From contig JABHUE010000145.1 of assembly GCA_018672825.1 (NCBI GenBank), positions 26,279 through 90,278 of the forward strand: a stretch of 64,000 nucleotides of DNA. The letters run 5' to 3'. Below are positions 8,653 through 30,102 of this stretch, piece by piece (positions within the stretch are counted from its first letter, which is position 1; each line of letters opens with the position of its first letter). Source of the DNA: Pseudomonadota bacterium (GTDB lineage Bacteria > Pseudomonadota > Gammaproteobacteria > Arenicellales > UBA868). A program made the position numbers and the translations under genes. The notes beneath the pieces were generated by a model that had not been told where the DNA came from, ran no database searches, and worked only from the letters and a program-made list of their open reading frames with translations.

Positions 8653-8729
8653 GCGCCCGTAGCTCAGCTGGATAGAGTACCTGGCTTCGAACCAGGTGGT
8701 CGGGAGTTCGAATCTCTCCGGGCGCGCCA
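8653..8729 (+). tRNA. tRNA-Arg (anticodon TCG), CCA encoded
   Basis: Acceptor gcgcccg/cgggcgc, anticodon stem cctgg/ccagg with loop cttcgaa, T-loop gttcgaatc, encoded CCA. Confidence 0.96.
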
Positions 8730-24338: not shown

Positions 24339-24824
24339 TTACGACTTGCCCGCGTTATAACGAACCGCTAAAACCTCGTAGCGACGCAAACCGCTTGGGG
24401 CTTGAAACTCAATCTCAACGCCCTCTGTCTTTCCAATAAGCGCCTTCGCGATTGGGGAACTATGCGAGATCAGTCCTTCATCAATATTAGCTTCCAACTC
24501 GCCTACGATTCGATAGGTTACCTCTCGATCGCCCTCCTCTTCCCAGAGATCAACCCAGGCGCCAAAAACAACTTTTCCATTGGCATTTAACTGCGCAGGA
24601 TTAATAACTTCTGCAACCGATAGCTTGGAGTCCAGCTCGGCTATTCGACCTTCAATGAAACCCTGCTGCTCTCGCGCGGCATGATATTCCGCATTCTCGG
24701 ATAAATCCCCGTGCGCGCGAGCTTCAGCAATAGCCTGAATAACGGCGGGTCTATCCTGCTTTTTTAGTCGGGATAGTTCATCCTGAAGTCGCTCAGCACC
24801 ATCGGGGGTCAGTAGGACTCTCAT
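24339..24824 (-). CDS. greA: Transcription elongation factor GreA
   Basis: [17 protein letters not shown]...[36 protein letters not shown]. Confidence 0.97.
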
Positions 24825-27800
24825 AATTTGACCGTTTGATGAAGGGACTGAAGTCTATTGATGCTTGGATTATCGCCTGCTTTGTGCGCCTCACAAGCTG
24901 CGCGTGCTCCCGCCAACGTAGTGAAATAGGCGACCTTATGGGTCAGCGCCTGCTTCCTGATGGTCTCTGAGTCAAGGCGACTATGTCTTGTAGCCGTTGT
25001 GTTCACAATTAAATCGTACTCACCATTCTTGATACTGTCGACCACGTGTGGTCGACCTTCACTGACTTTATTAACGACAGAAGCGGGTAGTCCAGCTTGT
25101 TCGAGCGCCATCGCCGTTCCTTCGGTTGCTTCCAAATCAAATCCATTCTCGCTCAGATACCGCGCGATGTCGACCACAGCGACCTGGTCCGGCGTTCGGA
25201 CACTGATCAACGCCTTTCCACTCGCCGGAATCAGTGTACCGGTCGCACGCTGGGCCTTTCGATACGCCTCCCCAAATGTCATGCCAATTCCCATCACTTC
25301 ACCAGTACTCTTCATTTCAGGTCCTAAAATTGGATCCACCCCGGGGAATTTTATAAAAGGAAATACAGCTTCCTTCACCGAATAATAAGAGGGACGAACC
25401 TCTCCATGAACGCCTTGCTGCGAAAGTGACTGACCTACCATCACCCGAGCACCTATCTTTGCAAGCGGTCTTGTGGTCGCTTTTGACACAAAAGGTACCG
25501 TTCGGGAAGCTCGCGGATTAACCTCAAGGACGTAAATCTCTTCCCCCTTAACCGCAAACTGTACATTCATCAGGCCATTTACATTTAGTGCCAAAGCCAT
25601 CTCACGCGTCTGACGCGTTAATTCTTGCTGCGTTTCGTCGCTTAATGCGAATGGTGGGAGCACACAAGCCGAATCACCTGAATGAACGCCAGCCTCCTCA
25701 ATATGCTCCATGATGCCACCAATCACTACATCGGTACCGTCACACACGGCGTCCACATCAACCTCAACCGCGTCGTTAAGAAAGCGATCGAGCAAAATCG
25801 GGGACTCGTTGGATACTCGAAAAGCATCGCGCAAGTAACGCTCAAGCTCTTCTTTGCCGTGAACAATCTCCATGGCACGTCCGCCAAGCACATAAGACGG
25901 TCGTACAACCAACGGATAACCGATCTCTTCCGCCCTTTCAAGCGCCTGCTGTTCAGTGCTCGCCGTTCGGTTAGGAGGTTGGAGCAGTCCTAGATTCTCT
26001 ATCAAGTCCTGAAAGTGCTCTCGATCTTCCGCTTGATGAATTGAGTCGGGAGAGGTGCCCAAAATAGGAACACCCGCCGCTTCCAATCCTCGGGAGAGTT
26101 TAAGCGGCGTTTGTCCGCCATACTGCACAATAACCCCTGTTGGCATCTCGACAGCACAAATCTCCAACACGTCTTCCAGAGTGAGTGGTTCAAAATAAAG
26201 TCGGTCGGACGTATCGTAGTCTGTGGATACTGTCTCGGGATTACAGTTAACCATTATTGTTTGGTAAGAGTCGGCCTGCAACGCCATAGACGCGTGGACG
26301 CAGCAGTAGTCAAACTCAATCCCCTGGCCGATTCGGTTTGGACCGCCGCCCAAGACAATAATTTTTGACGATTGCTCGGGTAAAGCCTCGCACTCAACCT
26401 CGTAACTCGAATAAAGATATGCCGTCGGCGTTTCAAACTCGCCAGCGCACGAATCAACGCGTTTATAGACAGGACGCACTCCCAATTCATGACGTTTTGT
26501 TCTGAGTTCTATTTCACCCACGTTGAGCAACGCGGCGAGCCGAACGTCCGAGAATCCATCCCGCTTAAAGGCGCGAAACATTTCCTGATCAATGCCCTCA
26601 AGGCTTAAATTTTCAATGCGCTTTTCTGTTTGAATAAGTTCTTCAATTTGAGCAAGAAACCAAGGGTCGATACCGGTCAGCTTTTGGACCTCGCCCAAGC
26701 TGAATCCTTGTCGAAAAGCGTCTCCAATAAACCACGCCCGGCGAGCCCCGGGAACTCGAAGATAACTGGCCATGTCATGAATGCCGGCCTGATCTTCCTG
26801 TTCATCCCAAACGGGGTCCAGTCCAAAACTACCAATCTCAAGACTGCGAAGCGCTTTTTGAAACGATTCCTTGAACGTACGACCAATCGCCATGACCTCA
26901 CCCACTGACTTCATTTGCGTGGTAAGCGTCGAATCTGCCTGGGGAAATTTCTCAAAATCAAACCGCGGGATTTTTGTAACGACATAGTCAATTGAAGGCT
27001 CAAATGACGCGGGCGTCGCGCCGCCCGTAATATCGTTATCTAACTCATCAAGCGTATAACCTACTGCCAACTTTGCAGCGATCTTCGCAATCGGGAAGCC
27101 CGTTGCCTTCGAGGCTAATGCGGAGGACCGGGACACTCGTGGATTCATCTCAATGACAATCATCCGCCCAGTGGCCGGATCAATCGCAAACTGGACATTT
27201 GACCCGCCAGTATCAACACCAATCTCGCGCAACACCGCAATGCTCGCGTTTCGCATCAGTTGGTATTCTTTATCTGAAAGTGTTAGCGCAGGGGCCACCG
27301 TGATCGAATCGCCGGTGTGAACACCCATCGCATCAAAATTCTCGATCGAACAAATAATAATGCAGTTGTCTCGGCTATCTCGAACGACCTCCATTTCATA
27401 CTCTTTCCAGCCGACAATACTTTCCTCGATCAGGAGTTCCGAAGTCGGCGATGCATCAAGTCCTCGAGCGCAAATTGCCTGATATTCTTCGGCGTTGTAG
27501 GCGATTCCCCCACCGCTACCCCCAAGGGTGAAAGACGGTCGAATGATCGCAGGAAAACCGATCTGCTCAAGAACCGTCATCGCATCGTCCATCGAATGCG
27601 CAAGATCTCCTTTCGCGACATCAAGACCAATTGCCTTCATCGCTACCCGGAAACGATCCCGATCCTCTGCTTTATCAATTGCATCTCGGGTTGCGCCAAT
27701 CATTTCGACGCCAAATTTTTCGAGGACACCATGTCGCACAAGATCTAACGAACAATTAAGGCCGGTCTGACCACCCATGGTAGGCAGCAGCGCGTCCGGG

Positions 27801-28045
27801 CGCTCTTTCTCAATAATTTGAGCCACAATCTCCCAGGTAATTGGCTCTATATAAGTTGCATCAGCAAACTCTGGATCTGTCATGATGGTTGCTGGATTAG
27901 AGTTGACCAGGACAACCCGGTAGCCCTCTTCTCGGAGCGCTTTGCAAGCCTGGACTCCTGAGTAATCGAACTCACACGCCTGGCCGATAACAATCGGACC
28001 TGCGCCAATCACTAAAACCGATTGAATATCTAATCGCTTAGGCAT
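24821..28045 (-). CDS. carB: Carbamoyl-phosphate synthase large subunit
   Basis: Full-length, [37 protein letters not shown]. Confidence 0.98.
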
Positions 28046-29168
28046 TGCAATTCTCCTTGTCCATCAAGGCGACAAACTGATCAAATAACCCAGTAATGTC
28101 TTGCGGGCCCGGGCTTGCTTCAGGATGCCCCTGAAAAGAAAACGCAGGCGAATCATTCAATGAAATGCCCTGAATCGAATCATCAAAAAGGGAGCGATGC
28201 GTAATTGATATATTTTCAGGGAGCGAATCCGGATCGACCGCGAAGCCATGATTCTGGCTCGTAATCATCACTCGACTCGTCGATAAATCAACCACCGGAT
28301 GATTAGCGCCATGATGACCGAATTTCATTTTTAGCGTCCGCCCACCCGCAGCAAGCGCTAATAACTGATGGCCTAGGCAAATACCAAAGGTTGGAATCTT
28401 GCGAGAAAGAATCTCCCTGATGGCCTCCACCGCATAAGTGCAAGGCTCCGGATCTCCTGGCCCATTCGACAGAAAAATACCATCCGGGTTTCGTGACAAA
28501 ACATCGACCGCTGTCGTCTCGGCAGGCACAACCTCTACAGCACAACCGCGATCCGCGAGCAGTCTTAAAATATTCTGCTTAACTCCAAAATCGTAAGCGA
28601 CTACACGAAATCTCTGTTGCGGAGCTTGTTGAAAACCCTTACCAAGTTGCCAACTGCCTTGGATCCATTGGTATGGCTTTTTTGTGGTCACGGTTTTGGC
28701 GAGATCCATTCCCTTCAAGCCGGCAAATTCACGCGCAATTGAAAGCGCCCGCACTTCGTCAATTGTTCCAGCTTGAATACAACCGTTTTGAGCGCCCTTT
28801 TGGCGAAGCAGTCGGGTTAATTTACGCGTATCTATATCGCTAATTCCCACCACGCCTTGTCTCGTCAAATAATCGGTTAGCGGTTCGGTCGCGCGAAAAT
28901 TACTCAGAAGATTTGGCAGGTCTCTCACAACAAGACCGCAGGCAAAAGCATATTTAGCTTCGATATCTTCGTCATTTGCGCCAACATTGCCAACGTGCGG
29001 ACAAGTTAACGTGACGATTTGCTGCGCGTAGGAGGGATCAGAGACGATCTCCTGATATCCTGTCATCGAGGTATTAAAAACCACTTCGCCGACTGTTTCG
29101 GCCAGCGCCCCAATTGACCGCCCGCGAAATACAGTACCGTCCTCCAGTACCAGAATCGCGGGTATCAC
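28038..29168 (-). CDS. carA: Carbamoyl-phosphate synthase small subunit
   Basis: [15 protein letters not shown]...[14 protein letters not shown]; glutaminase [20 protein letters not shown] start with gaggg SD. Confidence 0.98.
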
Positions 29169-29251
29169 GTTATCCCTCGATTAAATAGGCATAAAAAAAG
29201 GAGGATCTCCGGTGAGATTCTCCTTTTCGAAAAATTTTTTTGATGCCTCAT
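29165..29251 (-). CDS. Putative carAB leader peptide, 28 aa
   Basis: Hand translation [28 protein letters not shown]; stop overlaps the carA GTG start; the ORF spans the terminator hairpin. Confidence 0.55.
29193..29227 (-). terminator. Intrinsic terminator/attenuator before carA
   Basis: Minus strand aaaaggagaatctc-accg-gagatcctcctttt, 14-bp stem with one mismatch, followed by a run of 7 U. Confidence 0.8.
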
Positions 29252-29263
29252 TGCAAGAACGGC

Positions 29264-29292
29264 ATTCTATCGATTCCGACCCAAAACATCAA
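29264..29292 (-). promoter_or_regulatory. Putative sigma-70 promoter for carAB
   Basis: TTGATG - 17 bp - TAGAAT on minus strand, directly after the dapB stop. Confidence 0.65.
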
Positions 29293-30102
29293 TCATCCAG
29301 TGACATCTTTTATACCCAACACATCTTGCATATCGAACAAACCGACATCCTGGTCCGCAACCCAGATCGTGCTTCGAATTGCGCCCAAAGCATAAATCTC
29401 GCGACTTGTCGCTTTATGCACAATCTCCACGCGCTCGCCTGACCCTGCAAACCAAACGCTGTGCTCGCCGACAACGTCAGCCGCGCGAATCGTTGAGAAG
29501 CCGATCTCGCGATCCGCCCGCGGCCCAACAGCGCCCTCCCGCGCAAAAACCCCATGGTCAGATAGGTTTCTACCTAACGCTTTGGCAACCACTTCGCCCA
29601 TTTTCAGAGCCGTGCCTGACGGCGCATCAACTTTATGACGATGATGGGCCTCAATCACTTCAATATCTGCGTCGTTGCCGAAAGCTTTAGCGGCAACCTC
29701 AAGAAGTTTTAAGGTGATGTTCACGCCCACACTCATATTTGGCGCCCAAACGATGGCAATCTTTTCGGCAACACGGCGGATATGTTCCTGCTGATCAACA
29801 GTGAAACCGGTGGTTCCAATCACCGCCTTGATACCGTTGGCCGCACAGTAGTCAAGATTAATCAGTGTTGATTCAGGAGATGTAAAGTCAATCAGCACAT
29901 CAAAGGGAGGGCCCGCAATTCCCTCGCTAACACTGAGTTGAGACGATTGAATGGCCGCTAAAGCACAGGCAGAACGGCCAACTGACTCATGATCGGGACG
30001 CTCAAATACGTGCGCAACCGATACCCGATCGTCTGCGTCTCCAGCAGACAAAAGCGCTCGGCCCATTCGACCCGCGGCGCCTGCTATTGCTATACGAATC
30101 AT
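29293..30102 (-). CDS. dapB: 4-hydroxy-tetrahydrodipicolinate reductase
   Basis: IAIAGAAGRMGRALL; EAHHRHKVDAPSGTALKMGE. Confidence 0.97.
   Translation of the reverse strand: MIRIAIAGAAGRMGRALLSAGDADDRVSVAHVFERPDHESVGRSACALAAIQSSQLSVSEGIAGPPFDVLIDFTSPESTLINLDYCAANGIKAVIGTTGFTVDQQEHIRRVAEKIAIVWAPNMSVGVNITLKLLEVAAKAFGNDADIEVIEAHHRHKVDAPSGTALKMGEVVAKALGRNLSDHGVFAREGAVGPRADREIGFSTIRAADVVGEHSVWFAGSGERVEIVHKATSREIYALGAIRSTIWVADQDVGLFDMQDVLGIKDVTG

What the first reader, a model, noticed from the sequence alone, without database searches (positions are those of the whole stretch)
29165..29292. Compact pyrBI-style leader/attenuator controlling carAB
Seen directly on the minus strand in the 124-bp dapB-carA gap, in order: TTGATG-17-TAGAAT promoter; ATG leader ORF of 28 codons ([28 protein letters not shown]); AAAAAAAUUUUU tract (U5 at 29230-29234); then a 14-bp terminator hairpin with U7. 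The leader ORF passes through both arms of the terminator and its stop (TGA 29167-29165) overlaps the carA GTG start (29168). Established knowledge: in E. coli pyrBI and pyrE, UTP-sensitive pausing at a U tract lets a ribosome translating the leader disrupt the terminator. carAB in E. coli is instead known for promoter-level control (ArgR, PepA and others). Inference: this carAB operon uses translation-coupled UTP-sensing attenuation, with possible translational coupling of leader stop to carA start. The predicted 5' UTR is only about 6 nt with no clear SD, so leader translation would be close to leaderless.
Basis: partly seen in the sequence, partly recalled or inferred. Interest (0 to 1): 0.76.

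Follow-up and report, generated by a model that had tools for sequence, protein, structure and literature searches.

The report
Ribosome-read attenuator ahead of carAB
Just before the carAB genes, which make a precursor of pyrimidines and arginine, a tiny reading frame at the very start of the transcript runs through a transcription terminator; comparison with about 100 related genomes supports this as a conserved on/off switch worked by a translating ribosome, a variant of a known kind of control.

Summary
Minus strand, dapB-carA gap: TTGATG-17-TAGAAT promoter, a 28-codon ORF starting 12 nt after the -10, A7U5, a 14-bp hairpin with U7, and an ORF stop overlapping the carA GTG (GTGA).
It is a real conserved element, not chance. 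In 26 readable relatives of the same family, the AUG lies exactly 12 nt after the -10 in all. The ORF is open through the terminator in all, and its stop lies within -4..+5 of the carA start in 23. Two further families keep a near-5' AUG (+10, +8) with shorter ORFs. Their stops mostly abut the hairpin, lie 8-15 nt before it, or fall in its loop.
So ribosome-mediated attenuation of carAB is well supported. UTP sensing itself is inferred. A better candidate is the terminator's all-pyrimidine 3' arm plus U run: 12-15 consecutive pyrimidines, unlike 39 control terminators.
This is a compact, near-leaderless variant of that, working like E. coli pyrBI.

The parts
29287..29292 (-). -35 element TTGATG of the carA promoter, directly after the dapB stop codon
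   Evidence: TTGATG with a 17-nt spacer is also seen in genus relatives such as L003 and L007
29264..29269 (-). -10 element TAGAAT
   Evidence: a -10-like hexamer lies exactly 12 nt before the leader AUG in 26 of 26 family sequences
29254..29257 (-). Predicted start region CTTG (C7 Y8 Y9 R10 counted from the -10); predicted 5' UTR only 3-6 nt
   Evidence: pattern C-YY-R read from the aligned sequences and, for L112; start sites not mapped
29165..29251 (-). Leader ORF, 28 codons, no Shine-Dalgarno sequence, crosses both arms of the terminator; stop TGA overlaps the carA GTG
29230..29241 (-).
29195..29228 (-). Terminator hairpin of the attenuator, 14 pairs with one mismatch
   Evidence: covariation
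29193..29205 (-). Unbroken 13-nt pyrimidine tract UCCUCCUUUUUUU: 3' arm of the hairpin plus U run; candidate pyrimidine-sensing stretch
28038..29168 (-). carA (carbamoyl-phosphate synthase small subunit), GTG start
   Evidence: TIGR01368, 479.6 bits, over the cut-off
24821..28045 (-). carB ORF (large subunit), overlapping the end of carA
   Evidence: named from its sequence and position, no profile search run
29293..30102 (-). dapB, the upstream gene
   Evidence: named from its sequence and position; homologues found next to carA in relatives

Best explanation
A cis-acting transcription attenuator of carAB that is switched by a ribosome translating a near-leaderless ORF. Transcription starts a few nt upstream of the AUG. 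By default RNA polymerase makes a leader RNA of about 60-65 nt and stops at the hairpin/U7. When pyrimidine nucleotides are scarce, polymerase slows; a ribosome that loads at the 5' AUG then has time to enter the hairpin's 5' arm, the terminator cannot fold, and carAB is transcribed. The ribosome ends at the TGA that overlaps the carA start and may re-initiate there. Supported by sequence comparison: promoter, AUG spacing, open frame, stop placement, paired hairpin, ownership by carA. Inferred: actual translation, sensing of UTP/CTP, and re-initiation. The likeliest slow point is the 13-nt all-pyrimidine 3' arm plus U run, with the window's own U5 tract as an extra, species-specific aid.
For: Anatomy. 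Family conservation, 26 sequences: AUG exactly 12 nt after the -10 in 26/26, AUGAG in 25/26, AUG to end of U run 55-59 nt in all, ORF without a stop before the end of the U run in 26/26 (offset frames carry stops in 13/26 and 5/26), stop within -4..+5 of the carA start in 23/26 against 17/52 in the offset frames. Third-position excess in one clade before the hairpin, 16/8/74 pairwise differences at codon positions 1/2/3, peptide MSEHLIQK. Other families: f2 has AUG at +10 or +11 and a 9-codon ORF whose stop abuts the hairpin in 6/9 against 0/18 control frames; f10 has AUG at +8 and a stop 8-15 nt before the hairpin in 10/15 or in the loop in 3/15, with ORFs of 8-23 codons. Hairpin arms covary. 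The promoter, ORF and terminator persist where the upstream gene is not dapB (L021, L111, L112). Experiments in E. coli show that a terminator a few bp after a stop codon is repressed by ribosomes (PMC4824070) and that a coupled ribosome lowers termination (PMC10135430). In P. aeruginosa the carAB stem-loop is needed for the pyrimidine response (PMC4997734).
Against: No expression data from this organism; translation is not shown. The predicted 5' UTR of 3-6 nt has no ribosome-binding site. A terminator about 30 nt from an AUG was not repressed by ribosomes in E. coli unless polymerase is held back (PMC4824070). The U5 tract is not conserved. In family f8 and some others the same terminator stands without a near-5' AUG, so ribosome control is not universal for this terminator, and a leader start codon was not found in P. 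syringae either. Relatives are not independent data points, so the Fisher values are only indicative. Stop/start overlap is partly favoured because many of these carA genes begin NTGA.
Confidence: 0.62

Rival explanations
1. Arginine-codon attenuation: the ribosome stalls at the AGG AGA codons in the hairpin's 5' arm when charged Arg-tRNA is short, blocking the terminator. CarAB also feeds arginine synthesis.
For: Window ORF reads AAA AGG AGA in the 5' arm; family clade g6 has several Arg codons. No E. coli-type ArgR (PF01316) was found in this 93%-complete genome.
Against: Arg codons are not conserved: in L003 and L114 the ORF has no Arg codon in or before the 5' arm and L005 has one only in the loop; family f2 9-codon ORFs have at most one Arg. 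AGG/AGA here follow simply from the purine-rich arm.
Confidence: 0.1
2. Pyrimidine sensing happens at initiation (start-site choice at C7-YY-R10, as in E. coli pyrC/pyrD, or slippage as at pyrBI/carAB P1); the terminator only sets a fixed yield.
For: C7, Y8, Y9 and R10 after the -10 are kept in all 26 family sequences.
Against: Pattern not shared as such by families f2 and f10, which keep the same terminator; it does not explain stop-codon placement or the conserved hairpin. May act in addition.
Confidence: 0.12
3. The terminator is controlled without the leader ORF (for example by polymerase speed alone, or by 30S binding to the Shine-Dalgarno-like GGAG in the 5' arm); the ORF is incidental.
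For: Terminator conserved in families without a near-5' AUG; the P. syringae leader has no start codon. 5' arm is GGAG-like in most family members.
Against: Fixed AUG position and stop placement in three families and the third-position excess would be unexplained.
Confidence: 0.12
4. It is simply the dapB terminator, with an ordinary carA promoter nearby.
For: It lies directly after dapB.
Against: The carA promoter lies upstream of the terminator, and the whole element follows carA where dapB is absent. In 26 genomes of the order the conserved stem sequence occurs once per genome, at carA (the G108 copy checked).
Confidence: 0.04

Closest known systems
Pseudomonas aeruginosa carAB attenuator (Kwon et al. 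1994, as described in PMC4997734) and the P. syringae P32 leader RNA
   Same: Single promoter in the dapB-carA gap, stem-loop terminator before carA, pyrimidine response that depends on the stem-loop, leader peptide in P. aeruginosa, short RNA ending at the terminator in P. syringae.
   Different: Primary P. aeruginosa sequence and paper could not be read here, so peptide and spacing could not be compared. The P. syringae leader lacks a start codon; here the ORF is conserved, near-leaderless and ends on the carA start.
E. coli pyrBI (pyrL) attenuator
   Same: Leader ORF runs into and past an intrinsic terminator ahead of a pyrimidine operon, so a closely following ribosome can block the hairpin (description of pyrBI from general knowledge).
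   Different: Here there is no leader ribosome-binding site, the 5' UTR is a few nt, the AUG is only 23 nt from the hairpin base, and a U-rich pause stretch before the hairpin is not conserved. Gene controlled is carAB.
E. coli carAB P1/P2
   Same: Same operon; pyrimidine-dependent control.
   Different: E. coli uses repressors and UTP-dependent slippage at initiation (PMC6245113); no attenuation is described there.
carA motif RNA of Polynucleobacter (PMC8632094)
   Same: A structured element directly upstream of carA.
   Different: That motif is an extended hairpin ending at the ribosome-binding site in betaproteobacteria, a riboswitch candidate, not a terminator with an ORF.

Membership tests
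pyrBI-type (UTP-sensitive, translation-coupled) attenuator | Leader ORF that extends into or through an intrinsic terminator preceding the structural genes | tested here: met
   open through the terminator in 26 of 26
pyrBI-type (UTP-sensitive, translation-coupled) attenuator | U-rich pause stretch between leader start and hairpin | tested here: inconclusive
   U5 present in the window and its nearest relatives, absent in most of the family
pyrBI-type (UTP-sensitive, translation-coupled) attenuator | Leader ORF with its own ribosome-binding site | tested here: not met
   AUG 12 nt after the -10, predicted 5' UTR 3-6 nt
pyrBI-type (UTP-sensitive, translation-coupled) attenuator | Expression rises when UTP is low, through the terminator | not testable with these tools
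   needs expression assays
Pseudomonas carAB attenuator | Promoter and terminator hairpin between dapB and carA | tested here: met
Pseudomonas carAB attenuator | Pyrimidine response lost when the stem-loop is removed | not testable with these tools
   known for P. aeruginosa from PMC4997734; no data here
Pseudomonas carAB attenuator | Homologous leader peptide | not tested
   P. aeruginosa paper not held; its sequence was not fetched
Known RNA families (Rfam 15) | Match to a covariance model | tested here: not met
   no match in 29000-29450 at E up to 5
Amino-acid (arginine) leader-peptide attenuator | Conserved run of codons for the sensed amino acid | tested here: not met
   Arg codons not conserved among relatives

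The most novel reading that the evidence does not exclude
The sensor is the terminator itself: its 3' arm and tail form 12-15 consecutive pyrimidines, so a shortage of UTP and CTP stalls RNA polymerase inside the hairpin it is making, while a leaderless-type ribosome entering at the 5' AUG takes the purine-rich 5' arm. That would be a minimal switch of about 65 nt without a separate pause site, ribosome-binding site or antiterminator.
Probability: 0.3. Interest if true: 0.62.

Novelty: new variant of a known kind. Interest (0 to 1): 0.5.

Why it matters
It extends ribosome-read attenuation of carAB beyond Pseudomonas to at least three families of one gammaproteobacterial order, with an unusually small design in which the reading frame starts at the 5' end of the transcript. 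It gives a clear case to test whether a near-leaderless AUG can support transcription-translation coupling within about 60 nt, which experience with E. coli suggests is hard. It also offers a simple hypothesis for how a terminator could sense pyrimidines by its own sequence.

Tried and rejected
U5 tract as the general pause site: not conserved. Arginine codons: not conserved. Inverted repeat flanking the AUG (ATGCC/GGCAT in the window, other arms in relatives): its left arm would lie in the untranscribed -10 region and the pairing is broken in the close relative L113, so not pursued. Long-range pairing of the 5' AUGAG region with sequence after the terminator: seen in some relatives only. Rfam: no match. 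Other pyrimidine genes of the genome: pyrB follows ruvX directly and pyrE follows a divergent gene, with no similar leader. MAFFT alignment of hairpins misplaced short loops, so arms were paired by fold instead. P. aeruginosa primary paper and the pyrimidine review were not held.

Full report
What is there. On the minus strand, between the dapB stop (29293) and the carA GTG (29168), the window holds a sigma-70-type promoter (TTGATG, 17 nt, TAGAAT), an ATG 12 nt after the -10, a 28-codon ORF, an A7U5 tract, a 14-pair hairpin with one mismatch and U7, and a leader stop that overlaps the carA start as GTGA. The hairpin alone folds at -16.6 kcal/mol, z -4.2, with none of 200 shuffles as stable.

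Relatives. The window's genome (2.57 Mb in 167 contigs) was compared with 193 others through carA; the family holds 33 genomes and 26 sequences gave a readable upstream region, the window's own included. In all 26 the leader ATG stands exactly 12 nt after a -10-like hexamer, the ORF (21-28 codons) has no stop before the end of the U run, and the distance from ATG to the end of the U run is 55-59 nt. ATGAG is kept in 25 of 26. The two offset frames carry stops before that point in 13 and 5 of 26. The ORF stop falls within -4 to +5 nt of the carA start in 23 of 26, against 17 of 52 for the offset frames (Fisher about 2e-6; relatives are not independent, so this is only indicative). In one clade of nine the codons before the hairpin differ mostly at third positions (16/8/74), again inflated by shared ancestry. 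A caution: indels inside the hairpin shift the frame in that clade, so the peptide past the hairpin is not conserved; what is conserved is that the frame stays open.

Other families. Family f2 has its ATG at +10 (once +11), with a 9-codon ORF (for example MRSQLQNES*) whose stop directly abuts the hairpin in six of nine; the other three read through. Family f10 has its ATG at +8, ORFs of 8-23 codons mostly beginning MKRP, and a stop 8-15 nt before the hairpin in ten of 15, or in the hairpin loop in three. Although ORF lengths differ, a ribosome finishing there would in nearly all cases cover the 5' arm. In control frames such placement is rare (0 of 18 in f2; 5 of 30 in f10). Most members of families f8 and f7 keep the terminator but have no near-5' AUG, so the ribosome step is not universal.

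Ownership. In three family members the upstream gene is not dapB, yet promoter, ORF and terminator are retained. The stem GGGAGAARCC..GGYTTCTCCCT7 occurs in 26 of 109 genomes of the order, once in each and at carA (the one ambiguous contig was checked); the window's own family has variants of it. Stem positions vary with pairing kept, for example base pair 3 as A-T, G-C and C-G. The element therefore belongs to carA.

What could sense pyrimidines. More striking, the 3' arm of the terminator consists of pyrimidines: 12-15 in an unbroken run up to the end of the U run in all 26 family sequences (13 in the window), and 7-8 directly before the U run in 59 of 66 carA leaders of the order. In 39 control terminators from other places in the fetched loci the number before the U run is at most 3. 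The control set is modest and the carA sequences are related. That this run slows polymerase at low UTP/CTP is inference; no experiment here bears on it. Start-site sensing at a conserved C-YY-R is a possible addition.

Mechanism. In E. coli a terminator a few bp beyond a stop codon is repressed by ribosomes, whereas one 30 bp after an AUG is not, unless polymerase is held back (PMC4824070); a coupled ribosome lowers termination in vitro (PMC10135430). The conserved geometry therefore fits a switch in which slow polymerase lets a ribosome occupy the 5' arm. The lack of a ribosome-binding site means that initiation would have to be of the leaderless kind. Translation, pyrimidine response and re-initiation at carA remain to be shown.

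Known systems. In P. aeruginosa carAB has a single promoter after dapB, and its pyrimidine response depends on a stem-loop in the leader, with a leader peptide reported; in P. syringae the terminated leader is the small RNA P32, without a start codon (PMC4997734). The E. coli operon uses repressors and slippage at initiation (PMC6245113). The finding is thus a compact variant of a known kind, working like pyrBI, but lacking a leader ribosome-binding site and a conserved upstream U tract. The genome has no detectable E. coli-type ArgR (genome 93% complete), and neither pyrB nor pyrE has a comparable leader.

Noticed in passing
window 24339-29168 (-): carA, carB and a greA-like ORF lie in a row, as in the carAB-greA operon of Pseudomonas.
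   Followed up: no
L021, L111, L112 upstream of carA: The carA leader sits behind genes other than dapB (a uraD-like decarboxylase ORF in L021, a different ORF in L111/L112), showing that the element moves with carA.
   Followed up: partly
L119, L133, L144, L158, L166, L169, L194 upstream of carA: Moritella, Thalassotalea, Vibrio, Shewanella, Aeromonas and Kangiella share AATTTGCC/AATTTGTC just after the -10, resembling the E. coli carAB P1 start region tied to UTP-dependent slippage.
   Followed up: no
window 29192-29187 and 29249-29243 (-): The 5' GAGGCAU can pair with AUGCCU just after the U run, so read-through RNA could fold the leader start away; similar pairings appear in some relatives (L021, L111) but not all.
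   Followed up: partly
L026, L030, L035, L047, L076, L094, L095, L148 upstream of carA: Many more distant relatives have a CGGGAG..CTCCCG-like hairpin with a short U run some 25-35 nt before carA, often followed by GGAGGT and TTG: a carA attenuator may be widespread in Gammaproteobacteria.
   Followed up: partly
window 8653-8726 (+): tRNA gene, the only Rfam match in the window.
   Followed up: no
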